Source: Candidatus Nanohaloarchaea archaeon (GTDB lineage Archaea; Nanohalarchaeota; Nanosalinia; Nanosalinales; Nanosalinaceae). Taken from it: a DNA stretch of 46,137 bases. Made by a program: the position numbers and the translations under genes. Of this stretch, positions 817 through 40,168 are shown piece after piece. Where the stretch lies: positions 94,043 through 140,179 of the forward strand of contig JACOQA010000004.1 of assembly GCA_014297435.1 (NCBI GenBank), read 5' to 3'. The notes under the pieces were generated by a model, which did not search any database, was not told where the DNA came from, and saw nothing but the letters and a program-made list of their open reading frames with translations. Each line of letters opens with the position of its first letter. Position 1 is the stretch's first letter.

Positions 817-1932
817 CTAGTTGCTCTTTTCTTCGAGTTCTTCTTCGAGTCCGAGCTTCTCAGCTAGTTCTTTGTAGCGGTTTCTGATTGTTACTTCTGT
901 AACTCCGACTACGTCGGCAACTTCTCTCTGTGTTCTTTTCTCGCCTTCTAGGACTGCGGCGATGTAGAGTGATGCTGCTGCAAGACCTGTAGGTCCTTTG
1001 CCGGAGAGTAGGTCTCTTTCTCTTGCTTCTTTGAGGATGTTTCTTGCTCTTGCCTGCACTTCTCCTGAGAGCTGTAGCTTTCCTGCAAATCTTGGGACGT
1101 AGTCCTGTGGTTTTGCTGGAAGGATTCTTAGTCCGAGTTCTCTTGCGACGTAACGGTAAGCTCTTCCGATCTCTCGTTTTTCGATTCCTGATGCTTCGGA
1201 GATTTCGTCCAGGGTTCTTGGCGTTCCCTGTTTTCTTGCGACGATGTAGAGCAGTGCTGAGATGATGGATTCCATCGATCTTCCTCTTACTAGTCCTTGG
1301 TCTACAGCTTTTTCGTATAGGCGTGCGACTTCTTCATGGACTGATTCAGGAAGGTTTAGGTTGGACACCATCGAGTTGAGTTCAGAGAGTGCGAATCCAA
1401 GGTTGCGATCCTTGGACTTTGTGAGTCTCTTGTGCCATTTTCTGAGTCTGTAGTACTGGGCACGTTTGTTTCCTGAGACCTTGTAGAGTTCCCCTGAGCC
1501 TTTTCCGATCTCGGTGGATACTCCCATGTCGTGTTTTGTGTAGGTCAGAGGCTGTCCGGCTCTTGCCTTCTTTTCTCTTTCCTGTTCGTTGAATGCTCTC
1601 CATTCTGCGGATTCGTCGATTCTGTCTTCGTCAATGATTAGCCCACAGTCGACACAGGCGAGTTCTCCCTGTGCAGAGTCTTCTTTGAAGCGCTGGCTTC
1701 CACATTCAGGACATGTTAGAACTGTGTCGCCTTCTTCGGCTTCTTCACGTTTGATCTCGTAGCCTTCTCCCTGACCGACTTTTTCTTCCTCTTGTTCTGG
1801 TTCTTGGTCTGGTGTTTCAGCTTCTTCCTGTTCTGCTTCTTCTGCTTTTCCATCCTCGTCTTCTTCCCATTCCTCGGGGATCTGGTAGTCGTCGAACTGT
1901 CTCCTTGGTACGTTGTGCGAGTGTTCTGTCAT
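817..1932 (-). CDS. tfb: Transcription initiation factor B (TFB)
   Basis: Archaeal TFIIB homologue that binds the TBP-TATA complex and recruits RNA polymerase. From the ATG at 1932 it is 371 aa: an acidic Glu/Gln/Pro-rich N-terminal extension (about residues 10-70), a zinc ribbon (CPECGSQRF ... ACVDCGLII), the B-reader region (EWRAFNEQERE) and two cyclin-fold repeats ending in a helix-turn-helix (REVADVVGVTEVTIRNRY). Upstream in-frame codons allow a longer reading frame, but a strong Shine-Dalgarno (AGGAGGT on the minus strand, about 1941-1947) is 8-9 nt before the ATG at 1930-1932 and fixes this start. The extension is longer than in most archaeal TFBs and fits a halophile. TBP is encoded about 16 kb away. 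Confidence 0.97.
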   Translation of the reverse strand: MTEHSHNVPRRQFDDYQIPEEWEEDEDGKAEEAEQEEAETPDQEPEQEEEKVGQGEGYEIKREEAEEGDTVLTCPECGSQRFKEDSAQGELACVDCGLIIDEDRIDESAEWRAFNEQEREKKARAGQPLTYTKHDMGVSTEIGKGSGELYKVSGNKRAQYYRLRKWHKRLTKSKDRNLGFALSELNSMVSNLNLPESVHEEVARLYEKAVDQGLVRGRSMESIISALLYIVARKQGTPRTLDEISEASGIEKREIGRAYRYVARELGLRILPAKPQDYVPRFAGKLQLSGEVQARARNILKEARERDLLSGKGPTGLAAASLYIAAVLEGEKRTQREVADVVGVTEVTIRNRYKELAEKLGLEEELEEKSN

Positions 1933-9439: not shown

Positions 9440-9460
9440 AGTACACAGCTCCGGATGAAA

Positions 9461-9470
9461 TGTTAAAAAG
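9461..9470. promoter_or_regulatory. Candidate shared TATA element between elp3 (-) and sppA-like gene (+)
   Basis: TGTTAAAAAG is centred at 9465.5, while the midpoint between the two start codons (9439 and 9493) is 9466. It is the only TATA-like sequence in the 53-bp gap and is about 27 bp from each start, the distance expected for leaderless transcription. Read on the minus strand it is CTTTTTAACA. One element could therefore serve both genes. Confidence 0.5.
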
Positions 9471-9492
9471 AAAGCCCGAGTGCTGAAAACCT

Positions 9493-11361: not shown

Positions 11362-12006
11362 TTATAAATACTTGTTCGCCCTCTTCCTGAGTTTAGTCAG
11401 AAAGCCTCCTGCCTTCTTTCCATAAATTTCTCTCTCCTCATGAAGACCTTTCCACTCAAGACCGTCAAAAGCCGAACCAACCTGATTTCCATAACCATCA
11501 TAGAAACAGACCTCGTTCAAACCAAACTTGGAAGGTCTCTCGACTTCATCCAAAGAAAAGCCAAAACCCAGGATATCAAGAGGCTCTTTTCCTGTAGGCA
11601 CACCAAACTGTTCAGAAACCCTTTCGGGATCAAAACCCCCGATCCAGCAAGAACCTATACCTTCTTCCTCAGCAACCAGCCTCATGTTCTGAACCGCACA
11701 AGCAGCCTCGGCATTACACGCCTCTCTTGCCATATGATCGCTGAACCTGCGGGACATCCTGTCAATATCTCCCAGAATAATTACTGCAGTTGGAACCTCC
11801 TCCAACCTGTGGTCGCCCGCAGATTCTGAAAGAAACTCCTTCTTGTGCTCGTCCTCAACTACGATAAATTCAAGGCTTTGAACGTTTCCTGGCGAAGGCG
11901 CGTTCCTTCCCGCCTCCAGAACCTTCCCCATGGACTTCCGGGGGATAGTATCATCTTTACAGCTCCTGAAAGATTTGAGACCAAGCACTGAATCGAAGAC
12001 GCTCAT
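11362..12006 (-). CDS. Nitroreductase family protein
   Basis: 214-aa FMN-dependent oxidoreductase of the nitroreductase fold. KSFRSCKDDTIP matches the R-S/R-x-y-x...ipke start, followed by AGRNAPSPGNVQSLEFIVV (FMN binding) and EEEGIGSCWIGGFDPE with the C-terminal GFGF segment. The substrate is unknown; relatives reduce quinones, flavins or iodotyrosine-like compounds. A GTG codon lies 21 bp further out, but the ATG at 12006 is 26-27 bp from the TATA palindrome GGTTTAAACC, so leaderless translation from this ATG is likely. It is divergent from the DNA ligase gene with a 53-bp gap. Confidence 0.9.
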   Translation of the reverse strand: MSVFDSVLGLKSFRSCKDDTIPRKSMGKVLEAGRNAPSPGNVQSLEFIVVEDEHKKEFLSESAGDHRLEEVPTAVIILGDIDRMSRRFSDHMAREACNAEAACAVQNMRLVAEEEGIGSCWIGGFDPERVSEQFGVPTGKEPLDILGFGFSLDEVERPSKFGLNEVCFYDGYGNQVGSAFDGLEWKGLHEEREIYGKKAGGFLTKLRKRANKYL

Positions 12007-12027
12007 AATAAATTGGTTGGTGCCCAC

Positions 12028-12037
12028 GGTTTAAACC
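12028..12037. promoter_or_regulatory. Symmetric TATA palindrome shared by nitroreductase (-) and DNA ligase (+)
   Basis: GGTTTAAACC is a perfect 10-bp palindrome centred at 12032.5; the midpoint between the two start codons (12006 and 12060) is 12033. No other TATA-like element is present on either side. It is the clearest member of a set of divergent pairs with this geometry in the window. Confidence 0.6.
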
Positions 12038-12059
12038 TTTCAGCCCGAAAAATTCTCTC

Positions 12060-14771
12060 ATGAAGTATTCAAAACTAGTTGAAAAATACAAGCAGCTTGA
12101 GGAAACACAGTCCACACTCGACAAAACAGATATTCTAGCAGAACTCTATTCCGAGAACCCGGAAAACCTGGAATCTTTGGTGCTTCTATCTATGGGAAGA
12201 CCTTTTCCTGACTGGAAGGACCTAGATCTCGGTATCTCAAGCAAGACCATGGTAGATATAATTAAAGAGGCGACAGGAAGATCGGAGGATGAGATAGAAA
12301 GTGTCTGGAAAGAAAAAGGCGATCTTGGAGTTGCCGCTGAAAAAATGGTGGAGAAAAAAACCCAGCGGCGTCTGATGACCAAAGAATTAACGGTTGAACG
12401 CGTGATGGATAAACTGGAGAAAGTGGCAACAATGGGCGAAGGTGGAGGCGAAACGGGCAGCGTTTCGATGGCTACGAAGAAGAAAGAAGTAGCAGATCTA
12501 GTTTCATCCGCAGAACCTGAAGAGGCTAAATGGGTGACCAGAATATTCCTTCAGAACCTCCGGCTTGGAGTAGCAGAAGGACTTGTTCGAGACGCATTAG
12601 CTGAAGCATTTTTCGATGGCAAAAACACCGATATAATCCAGCACGCATACGACCTGACCAACGACTTCACCGAGGTAGCGAAAGCCTGCACTGAAGGGGT
12701 CGAAGCGCTCGAAGAACTGGAGATAGAGGTCTTCAGACCTATCAACTCGATGCTGGCGAAGAAAGTTGATACTATCGAAGAAGGTTTCGAATCTGTAGGC
12801 GAACCTGCCGCAATCGACTACAAATACGATGGCATGAGATGTATCTCAGGTTATACTCCGATATACGTAAAGGATAAAGGGATCGTGTCTGTACGCGATG
12901 TCAAGAAAGGCGATAAGGTTTTAACACATAAAGGGCGGTTTAAGAAGGTTGAAGCAAAAAGCAAACGTCAAATAGACAGTGACGAAGATGTTTTCCGATT
13001 CTCAAGTTATCTCGGCAACGACTTCAAAATCACGGAAGGTCACGAAATTCTAACAGATGAAGGCTGGATAAACGTTGAAGACCTGGAAAATGAGAGACTT
13101 GTTTTTCCCATACCCGACATAGAAGTTGATACCGACAAGCCTTCAGATCTCAACTTGAAAAGAAATGGCGGCTACAAAAAGAAGATAGAATTGACGCCCG
13201 AAGTATGGAAAATAATAGGTTTCTGGGTCGGAGATGGATATTCAAACAAAGCAAACGGAAACCAAAGAATAGGCCTAGTATTCAACGAAGAGGAAAAGGA
13301 ACGATTCCAAGAATATCGGGAATTAGTGAAAAATAATCTTAAAATTCCCGAGAACGAACTCAGAACACATTCTCACAACGACGGCAAGACCCTCTACTGG
13401 ACTGACCCGCCTTTCCTAAGGTGGATGTCAAAGAACTTTAGAAAACAAGATCAGAGCGGCTGGAAAGATAAACGGGCGCCCGAATGGTTCTGGAAGCTCA
13501 CAGAAGAAGAATTCAGAAGTTTCTTAGACGGTTGGATTGAAGCAGACGGCCAAAAAGACGAGAAAGGAAAATGGAAGAACGTTACAACTAAAGAAAGATC
13601 TCTAGCAACAAAAGCCCAACTTATCGCTTCAAAACACGGCATAAAATCCGGTATTCGAAAACTAAGAATAGATGGAAGTACCTATTATCGCCTAGTTTTC
13701 ACCGTATCAAACAAGCATGTGGAAATCGACGGAAATAAAATGAAATTGAGAATTCTAAAGAAAGAGAGACTTTCGCGTAACTCCCCTAAAGAAGTAGATC
13801 CTCGACAGAAAGTATATAATCTTCAGGTAACCGACGATGAAAGTTACTGCACCACCACTGTTGCACTACATAACTGTCAGATACATAAGAAAAAGGATGA
13901 AGTGAAGCTATTCACTAGAAGGCTTGAGGATGTCACTAAACAGTTCCCGGATGTTGTAGAGGCGGTTAAGAACAATATTGATGCCGAAAAATGTATTATA
14001 GATACCGAGATCTTGGCCTACGATCCTGATACAGGTTCTACGATCCCGTTCCAGAAGCTTTCGAAACGTATCAAGAGAAAATACGATATCCAGAAACTGA
14101 AAAAGGAGATACCTGTAGAGGTAAGACCTTTCGATGTTATCTACCTAGAAGGTTCGATGCTTGAGGAGAACTATAGTGAGAGATGGTCGAAGCTCGGAGA
14201 AATTGTGGAAGAGGAGAAACAGGAGTTGAGACTGGTAGACCACTTTGAAACCTCTGAGGAAGAAAGAGTCCAGGAACTTCAACAGAAAGCTCTGTCTGAA
14301 GGTCATGAGGGTATAATGATGAAAGCTTTAGATGCCAGATACAAACCCGGTAACCGTGTCGGATACATGGTTAAGTTGAAGCCTGTCATGGAGACACTGG
14401 ATCTTGCGATTATCGGTGCGAAGTGGGGCGAAGGTCGACGTAGCGGCTGGCTTTCCCGATTGAAACTTGGTTGCTGGGACGATAAGTCAGGCGAATATAA
14501 GATGGTTGGACGTATGGCCACAGGTCTAACTGATGAGCAATTGGAAGAGATAACTGAGAAACTTGAACCTTTGATTGTAAGCGAGGATGGACGAGATGTT
14601 GACGTAAGACCTGAAGTTATCGTGGAGGCGGAGTACGAGGAGATACAGAAAAGTCCTAACTATTCTTCAGGTTACGCCTTGAGATTTCCACGTATGAAGC
14701 AGTTCCGGGATGATAAGGAAAACGCCGACTCACGTGAAAAAGTGGTTAATCTGTACGAGGATCAAAATTAA
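12060..14771 (+). CDS. lig: ATP-dependent DNA ligase containing an intein
   Basis: 903-aa precursor; removing a 345-residue intein leaves a 558-aa archaeal replicative ligase (LigI type). It joins Okazaki fragments and nicks using ATP. The N-terminal DNA-binding domain is intact (RIFLQNLRLGVAEGLVRDA). The nucleotidyl-transfer motif KYDGMR at residues 255-260 carries the adenylated Lys255, and the intein starts at the next residue, Cys261. Downstream motifs are intact: DTEILAYD (III), GIMMKALDARYKPG (IV) and YMVKLKP (V), then the OB domain. Without splicing the active site would be disrupted, so splicing should be essential. Transcription probably starts from the symmetric TATA shared with the nitroreductase. 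Confidence 0.97.
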   Translation: MKYSKLVEKYKQLEETQSTLDKTDILAELYSENPENLESLVLLSMGRPFPDWKDLDLGISSKTMVDIIKEATGRSEDEIESVWKEKGDLGVAAEKMVEKKTQRRLMTKELTVERVMDKLEKVATMGEGGGETGSVSMATKKKEVADLVSSAEPEEAKWVTRIFLQNLRLGVAEGLVRDALAEAFFDGKNTDIIQHAYDLTNDFTEVAKACTEGVEALEELEIEVFRPINSMLAKKVDTIEEGFESVGEPAAIDYKYDGMRCISGYTPIYVKDKGIVSVRDVKKGDKVLTHKGRFKKVEAKSKRQIDSDEDVFRFSSYLGNDFKITEGHEILTDEGWINVEDLENERLVFPIPDIEVDTDKPSDLNLKRNGGYKKKIELTPEVWKIIGFWVGDGYSNKANGNQRIGLVFNEEEKERFQEYRELVKNNLKIPENELRTHSHNDGKTLYWTDPPFLRWMSKNFRKQDQSGWKDKRAPEWFWKLTEEEFRSFLDGWIEADGQKDEKGKWKNVTTKERSLATKAQLIASKHGIKSGIRKLRIDGSTYYRLVFTVSNKHVEIDGNKMKLRILKKERLSRNSPKEVDPRQKVYNLQVTDDESYCTTTVALHNCQIHKKKDEVKLFTRRLEDVTKQFPDVVEAVKNNIDAEKCIIDTEILAYDPDTGSTIPFQKLSKRIKRKYDIQKLKKEIPVEVRPFDVIYLEGSMLEENYSERWSKLGEIVEEEKQELRLVDHFETSEEERVQELQQKALSEGHEGIMMKALDARYKPGNRVGYMVKLKPVMETLDLAIIGAKWGEGRRSGWLSRLKLGCWDDKSGEYKMVGRMATGLTDEQLEEITEKLEPLIVSEDGRDVDVRPEVIVEAEYEEIQKSPNYSSGYALRFPRMKQFRDDKENADSREKVVNLYEDQN
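12840..13874 (+). mobile_element. Intein with LAGLIDADG homing endonuclease in DNA ligase
   Basis: Residues 261-605 of the ligase precursor. Splicing motifs are complete: Cys1 with CISGYTPIYV (block A), ITEGHEIL with the TxxH pair (block B), VYNLQVTDDESYCT (block F), and His-Asn followed by Cys606 as the +1 residue (block G). The endonuclease has both LAGLIDADG-type helices, IIGFWVGDG (precursor residues 385-393) and FLDGWIEADG (488-497), each with its catalytic Asp, so it may still be active and mobile. It is inserted immediately after the catalytic KYDGMR motif, a highly conserved site that homing elements favour. Confidence 0.96.
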
Positions 14772-17824: not shown

Positions 17825-18388
17825 ATGAGCGAAGAAGGTTTTGACGAGGACGACGGAATAAAAATCGAGAACGTAGTTGCTTCCACCACACTAGACAGGA
17901 GGATGCCCCTCGACAGGATAGCGATCTACCTAGAAAACACCGAATACGAACCAGAACAGTTCCCAGGACTAGTATACAGACTGGAAGAACCAAAGGCCGC
18001 AGCACTACTGTTCGGATCAGGCAAAGTTGTATGTACAGGAACACAGAGCCCGGACATGGCAAAAGAAGCCGTACACAAGATCATCGACGAACTAAGAGAA
18101 GCAGACGTCGAGATCGGAACAAAGCCAGAGATCACAGTACAGAACATGGTCGCATCATCAGAACTCGACCACACACTCAACCTGAACAGGATTGCATTCG
18201 AACTAGTCGGTACAGAGTACGAACCAGAACAGTTCCCAGGACTAGTATACAGGATCGAAGAACCAAACGTAGTATTCCTACTCTTCTCATCAGGAAGAAT
18301 CGTTTGTACAGGAGGAAGAACCTACGAAGATGTCCGCAACGGCATCAACAAGCTAAAAGAGAACCTCGAGGAGATCGGGGCTCTCTAA
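17825..18388 (+). CDS. tbp: TATA-box-binding protein (TBP)
   Basis: 187-aa archaeal TBP with the two direct repeats of the saddle: ENVVASTTLDRRMPLDRIA ... FPGLVYRLEEPKAAALLFGSGKVVCTG and NMVASSELDHTLNLNRIA ... FPGLVYRIEEPNVVFLLFSSGRIVCTG. The short N-terminal extension is acidic. Start at ATG 17825, since GAGGTGA lies about 9 nt upstream and the alternative GTG at 17813 would overlap it. Two AT-rich boxes (about 17751-17760 and 17769-17778) precede it, giving a leader of about 24 nt, unlike the leaderless neighbours. Confidence 0.97.
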   Translation: MSEEGFDEDDGIKIENVVASTTLDRRMPLDRIAIYLENTEYEPEQFPGLVYRLEEPKAAALLFGSGKVVCTGTQSPDMAKEAVHKIIDELREADVEIGTKPEITVQNMVASSELDHTLNLNRIAFELVGTEYEPEQFPGLVYRIEEPNVVFLLFSSGRIVCTGGRTYEDVRNGINKLKENLEEIGAL

Positions 18389-19156: not shown

Positions 19157-19208
19157 AGCTTTTCTGGTGTAGTGAATCCTTTTCAGCTTTTCCGCCCCAT
19201 ATTACAAT

Positions 19209-37729: not shown

Positions 37730-37750
37730 ACCTCAAACTTTGTGCGGTCT

Positions 37751-37760
37751 CAAATAAAAG
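37751..37760. promoter_or_regulatory. Candidate shared TATA-like element (37729 -, 37783 +)
   Basis: CAAATAAAAG centred at 37755.5, the midpoint between start codons being 37756. On the minus strand it reads CTTTTATTTG. Same 53-bp geometry as elp3/sppA and nitroreductase/ligase. Confidence 0.5.
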
Positions 37761-37782
37761 GTTTGCCGGTCTTTCCAAACCT

Positions 37783-40004: not shown

Positions 40005-40025
40005 AACCCACTCTTTAGATTGAAA

Positions 40026-40036
40026 GCTTCAAAACC
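40026..40036. promoter_or_regulatory. Candidate shared promoter centre (40004 -, 40058 +)
   Basis: The midpoint 40031 falls in GCTTCAAAACC, the most A/T-like run in the 53-bp gap; TATA character is weak. The gap length is the same as in three other divergent pairs. Confidence 0.3.
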
Positions 40037-40057
40037 ATTGTCCGACCATAACGTGTC

Positions 40058-40168
40058 ATGAAGCCGCTGAAGAAAATCCGTTCTATAATCAGAACAGTTA
40101 GAAGTGCATTAATCTTCCTTGGACTACTGAGTGTGTTGAGGAGAGCCGGCGATATAAGAAAGAGGTAG
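40058..40168 (+). CDS. Cationic mini-protein 1, 36 aa
   Basis: M-KPLKKIRSIIRTVRSALIF-LGLLSVLRRAGDIRKR: net charge about +10, with a hydrophobic core ALIFLGLLSVL flanked by basic ends, in a genome with acidic proteins. The ATG is 53 bp from the divergent aaRS-like start. It resembles small membrane-active peptides (toxin-like, or accessory peptides), but nothing is known. Followed within about 20 bp by two more mini-ORFs. Confidence 0.5.
   Translation: MKPLKKIRSIIRTVRSALIFLGLLSVLRRAGDIRKR

What the first reader, a model, noticed from the sequence alone, without database searches (positions are those of the whole stretch)
12007..12059. Divergent gene pairs with a fixed 53-bp start-to-start gap and one central TATA-like element
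Seen: elp3/sppA-like (9440-9492), nitroreductase/ligase (12007-12059), 94-aa/160-aa genes (37730-37782) and aaRS-like/mini-protein (40005-40057) are each separated by exactly 53 bp; PCD/MCM (19157-19208) by 52 bp. In the first three the only AT-rich box is within half a base of the midpoint, 26-27 bp from both start codons (GGTTTAAACC, a perfect palindrome, at the ligase). That is the distance for leaderless initiation in both directions. Known: TBP binds a pseudo-symmetric box, and orientation normally needs BRE. Inference: a single TBP/TFB site may be used in both directions, a strict space-saving design that makes the two genes compete or co-vary.
Basis: partly seen in the sequence, partly recalled or inferred. 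Interest (0 to 1): 0.85.

Follow-up and report, generated by a model that had tools for sequence, protein, structure and literature searches.

The report
Two genes sharing one TATA box
In these tiny salt-loving archaea about one in ten back-to-back gene pairs have their start codons 51-56 letters apart around a single central promoter box, as expected if one protein-binding site starts both genes, although no RNA data yet prove it.

Summary
Four of the five gaps are real gene pairs (53, 53, 52, 53 bp); the fifth partner, a 36-aa ORF, is unsupported. The window lies in a ~1 Mb Nanohaloarchaeota genome.

I sampled 2.67 Mb from eight related genomes, called genes and measured 402 divergent gaps. 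There is a sharp peak at 51-56 bp (41 pairs, 32 independent families, mode 53), with sparse flanks and no such peak in convergent or codirectional gaps. It survives leaving out the window, start calling without promoter information, and an annotation-free count.

First genes here look leaderless: box at -30 to -24, A-rich BRE at -36 to -33, no Shine-Dalgarno. A promoter matrix trained only on codirectional genes is self-complementary about -27.0 (r=0.89), which predicts a shared-box gap of exactly 53.

Best explanation: one BRE-TATA-BRE site, bound by TBP/TFB in either orientation, starts both leaderless mRNAs. The mechanism is known from Pyrococcus (start sites ~50 bp apart). Its use as a recurrent spacing rule for protein-coding pairs is unreported in the papers I could search. 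The gap is not strictly fixed; competition or co-variation is untested; there is no transcript evidence.

The parts
12007..12059 (.). 53-bp divergent intergenic region nitroreductase / DNA ligase; proposed bidirectional promoter
12028..12037 (.). GGTTTAAACC, central TATA element; TTTAA invariant in 19 relatives
12038..12043 (-). TTTCAG, A-rich BRE of the nitroreductase direction (reads CTGAAA on the minus strand), at about -32 to -37 of its start; largely conserved
11362..12006 (-). nitroreductase-family gene (PF00881)
12060..14771 (+). ATP-dependent DNA ligase with an intein-like insert
9440..9492 (.). 53-bp divergent region Elp3 / S49 peptidase; central TTAAAAA 9463-9469
37730..37782 (.). 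53-bp divergent region of the 94-aa and 160-aa genes; central AAATAAAA 37752-37759
19157..19208 (.). 52-bp divergent region Pterin_4a / MCM; weak central TTTTCA
40005..40057 (.). 53-bp gap to a 36-aa ORF; doubtful pair
17825..18388 (+). the genome's single TBP gene, the factor proposed to bind the box
817..1932 (-). one of two TFB genes found in the genome

Best explanation
These are bidirectional core promoters. One TATA element with an A-rich BRE on each side is bound by TBP/TFB in either orientation, and RNA polymerase starts about 27 bp away on either side, at or next to the two start codons, making two leaderless mRNAs. The 51-56 bp start-to-start distance is simply twice the box-to-start distance of a leaderless promoter. 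Shown by sequence: the spike, the single central box, the symmetric promoter model, the lack of Shine-Dalgarno signal at these starts. Inferred: TBP/TFB occupancy, transcription in both directions, and mutual exclusion of the two initiation complexes.
For: Peak at 51-56 with mode 53 in 402 divergent pairs, 32 independent families, robust to start rule, to leaving out the window and to annotation. Whole-genome pattern count in 19 same-family genomes: 68 hits at gap 53 against 32 at 43 and 36 at 63 (sums mine). Promoter matrix from codirectional genes only is symmetric about -27.0, r=0.89, predicting 53. In spike pairs the strongest box lies 25-29 bp from both starts in 19 of 32, against 2 of 45 neighbouring gaps and 6% of shuffles. 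An A/T run of 6 or more lies within 2 bp of the midpoint in 33 of 41. Box conserved in the ligase pair across relatives, gap 51-57 in 12 of 15. Precedent in Pyrococcus, in vitro (PMC6640164).
Against: No RNA data for any member. The gap varies over 51-56 and drifts in orthologues. Some spike pairs, PCD/MCM among them, lack a clear central TATA. One relative, G003, has 0 of 51 pairs in the peak. My gene and start calls are uncurated, and relatives were sampled at 20-40%.
Confidence: 0.78

Rival explanations
1. Two overlapping but distinct directional promoters, with two TATA elements offset by a few bases, packed as closely as possible; no site is truly shared.
For: Peak width of 51-56 allows small offsets. 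G000 PCD/MCM shows CTTTTCAGCTTTTCC, possibly two adjacent weak boxes, and orthologues have gaps of 60-62.
Against: 25 of 41 spike regions have only one A/T run of 6 or more, and most of these runs are central. Packing alone gives a lower limit, not a peak with nothing at 57-58.
Confidence: 0.13
2. Only one gene of each pair is transcribed from the central box in a functional way; the other transcript is a by-product and that gene is expressed otherwise, or hardly.
For: Ordinary codirectional promoters here also have a reverse score peaking at virtual gap 53, so reverse firing may be a by-product as proposed for Pyrococcus. In the ligase pair the BRE of one direction is better conserved than that of the other.
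Against: Both sides of spike pairs score well as promoters (mean 2.25 and 1.78, against 1.04 for widely spaced pairs), and real genes start at the predicted place on both sides.
Confidence: 0.07
3. Chance or gene-calling artefact.
Against: The peak survives with the window left out, coding-only starts, one count per gene family, and no annotation; convergent and codirectional gaps show no such peak.
Confidence: 0.02

Closest known systems
Bidirectional BRE-TATA-BRE promoters of Pyrococcus furiosus (Gruenberger et al. 2019, PMC6640164)
   Same: One near-symmetric TTTAAA-type box with BRE on both sides, start sites about 50 bp apart (49 bp in vitro).
   Different: There the reverse product is mostly antisense RNA of head-to-tail genes, and head-to-head genes were set aside; here both products would be leaderless mRNAs, so the rule shows in start-codon spacing.
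Symmetry-driven divergent transcription in bacteria and archaea (Warman et al. 2021, Nat Microbiol; known to me by title and citations only, not held)
   Same: Divergent transcription ascribed to promoter symmetry.
   Different: Could not be read; whether it reports gene-pair spacing in leaderless archaea was not checked.
Divergent gvpA/gvpD promoters of haloarchaea (PMC4390858)
   Same: Oppositely oriented archaeal promoters in one short intergenic region.
   Different: Two separate TATA-BRE elements 35 bp apart, starts 108 bp apart, with overlapping activator sites: separate-box type, not shared-box.

Membership tests
Archaeal bidirectional BRE-TATA-BRE promoter | One TATA element midway between two divergent starts | tested here: met
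   Start codons stand in for TSSs; A/T run within 2 bp of midpoint in 33 of 41 spike pairs, weak in PCD/MCM
Archaeal bidirectional BRE-TATA-BRE promoter | BRE on both sides of the box | tested here: met
   Statistically, over the class: A-rich at -36 to -33 and T-rich mirror at -21 to -19; at single loci it varies
Archaeal bidirectional BRE-TATA-BRE promoter | Transcripts in both directions, about 50 bp apart | not testable with these tools
   No RNA data for this lineage were available
Archaeal bidirectional BRE-TATA-BRE promoter | TBP and TFB present | tested here: met
   One TBP and two TFB genes in G000
Leaderless archaeal genes | Box about 27 bp before the start codon and no Shine-Dalgarno | tested here: met
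   Spike genes: A/T peak at -30 to -24, G only 11-13% at -12 to -9; operon genes have 39-49% G there
Separate-box divergent promoters (gvpA/gvpD type) | Two separate TATA-BRE elements | tested here: not met
   A single A/T run of 6 or more in 25 of 41 spike regions; not met for the class, possible for some members

The most novel reading that the evidence does not exclude
Nanohaloarchaeota have a quantised promoter architecture for divergent genes: one shared box (51-56 bp), interlocked boxes (about 38 bp) or separate boxes (81 bp or more), with intermediate gaps avoided because TBP/TFB complexes collide. The shared-box form would enforce mutually exclusive firing of two protein genes.
Probability: 0.3. 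Interest if true: 0.75.

Novelty: new variant of a known kind. Interest (0 to 1): 0.6.

Why it matters
It turns bidirectional archaeal transcription, discussed in Pyrococcus mainly as a source of antisense RNA, into a visible spacing rule for protein-coding gene pairs in a reduced genome. The rule can be read from sequence alone: it helps to fix start codons, predicts which genes share a promoter, and gives natural pairs for testing whether two polymerases exclude each other at one TBP/TFB site.

Tried and rejected
Perfect palindromy as the hallmark: rejected (2 of 41 against 18 of 575 ordinary promoters). The 36-aa partner at 40058: not supported. Haloarchaeal plasmids as a test of generality: 1 of 78 gaps at 51-56, read by me from the annotation tables, but their divergent gaps are long (median 299), so this says little about haloarchaeal chromosomes. 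Other archaea by pattern count: 126 hits at 53 against 102 at 43 and 87 at 63 in 12 genomes (sums mine), so at most weak; G035 is the exception with 21 against 10 and 12. Haloferax and Halobacterium TSS papers: the words bidirectional, divergent and symmetry do not occur in them. Functional relatedness of partners was not tested systematically.

Full report
Setting. The window is G000:C10:94043-140179 in a genome of 998,768 bases, 99% complete. Named relatives of its DNA ligase are Nanohaloarchaeota. TBP is a single gene inside the window (17825-18388) and there are two TFB genes, one in the window.

Observation. The gaps are as stated. Three have an A/T box on or within half a base of the midpoint; PCD/MCM and 40005 have weak boxes. 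The partner at 40058 is a 36-aa ORF that was not called and has no relative in the sample.

Genome-wide test. Stretches totalling 527 kb of G000 (window included) and 2.14 Mb of seven relatives of the same family were taken, and genes were called with a codon-pair model. 402 divergent pairs were found. With start choice by coding potential plus a promoter matrix trained only on codirectional genes, the counts at 50 to 58 bp are 1, 6, 7, 10, 6, 5, 7, 0, 0; the mode is 53. With coding potential alone they are 1, 5, 6, 7, 5, 3, 6, 0, 0. Leaving out the window that suggested the idea, the coding-only count at 51-56 is 29 against 7.0 expected from flanks (p=4e-10). An annotation-free count of first-ATG ORFs gives 33 against 9.3 (p=1e-9); that count includes the window. 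Counting each orthologous pair family once gives 29.1 against 4.1, from 32 families. Convergent and codirectional gaps have no such peak. The range 51-56 was chosen after seeing the histogram, and expected values rest on neighbouring gap lengths, not on a mechanistic null; the p-values should be read with that in mind.

Whole genomes. A pattern count needing no annotation (CAT, 7 central A/T, ATG) gives 68 hits at gap 53 in 19 same-family genomes against 32 at 43 and 36 at 63; the sums are mine from the tables.

Why 53. Genes with their own upstream region have a box at -30 to -24, an A-rich BRE at -36 to -33 and no Shine-Dalgarno; genes inside operons have a Shine-Dalgarno instead. The codirectional-only promoter matrix is self-complementary about -27.0 with r=0.89, which places a shared box at a gap of 53. 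So the promoters of this lineage are intrinsically symmetric, and 53 is where both directions can use one site. In spike pairs, scored with coding-only starts, the strongest box is 25-29 bp from both starts in 19 of 32, against 2 of 45 neighbours and 6% of shuffles. For neighbours with gaps far from 53 a single box cannot meet this geometrically, so the shuffle is the fairer control.

Evolution. At the ligase pair the TTTAA of the box is invariant in 19 relatives, and the gap is 51-57 in 12 of 15 same-family genomes. In one exception (L012, gap 66) the box stays about 27 bp from the ligase, and the nitroreductase has GGAGG just upstream of its start, which looks like a short leader with a Shine-Dalgarno (my reading of the sequence). 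In G015 the Elp3/peptidase pair has gap 67 and two similar boxes about 14 bp apart, where G000 has one box and gap 53. These read as natural examples of a box being shared or split, but each is a single case.

Other gap classes. There is a small group at 33-40 bp, where each gene's box would lie nearer the other gene's start, and a rise from 81 bp on. I offer the three-class reading only as the novel case; counts outside the main peak are small.

Known ground. P. furiosus has antisense start sites about 50 bp upstream of sense ones, a BRE-TATA-BRE motif between them, and in vitro transcription both ways 49 bp apart (PMC6640164). Its authors set head-to-head genes aside for the motif analysis. 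Warman et al. 2021 could not be read. The open-access library gave no paper on nanohaloarchaeal promoters of this kind, judged from titles and abstracts.

Verdict. The finding is real and its main inference is well supported by sequence. The mechanism is known; its recurrent use for protein-coding leaderless pairs is a new variant as far as I could search. Transcription from both sides, and any competition, remain to be shown.

Noticed in passing
window 12843-13874 (ligase residues about 262-605): About 344 residues absent from most relatives' ligases; LAGLIDADG_3 hit above its cut-off and a Hint-type hit below its cut-off: probable intein. G035, outside the order, has a match over the full length.
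   Followed up: partly
MCM of G001, G004, G005: MCM open frames of 1184, 1184 and 1377 aa against 669 aa here: possible inteins in MCM of relatives.
   Followed up: no
Gaps of 33-40 bp, e.g. L042, L041, L081: Small group of divergent pairs whose two boxes appear interlocked about 15 bp apart.
   Followed up: partly
L133, Elp3/peptidase gap of 67 bp (G015): Two similar box copies about 14 bp apart where G000 has one box and a 53-bp gap.
   Followed up: partly
L059:11056-11110: A spike pair whose partners look like UDP-glucose dehydrogenase and a sugar nucleotidyltransferase, possibly one pathway; named from sequence by eye, no family search run.
   Followed up: no
L188:17799-17853 (Natrinema plasmid): A 53-bp divergent gap between a DUF2080 gene and tnpA of an IS200/IS605 element in a haloarchaeon.
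   Followed up: no
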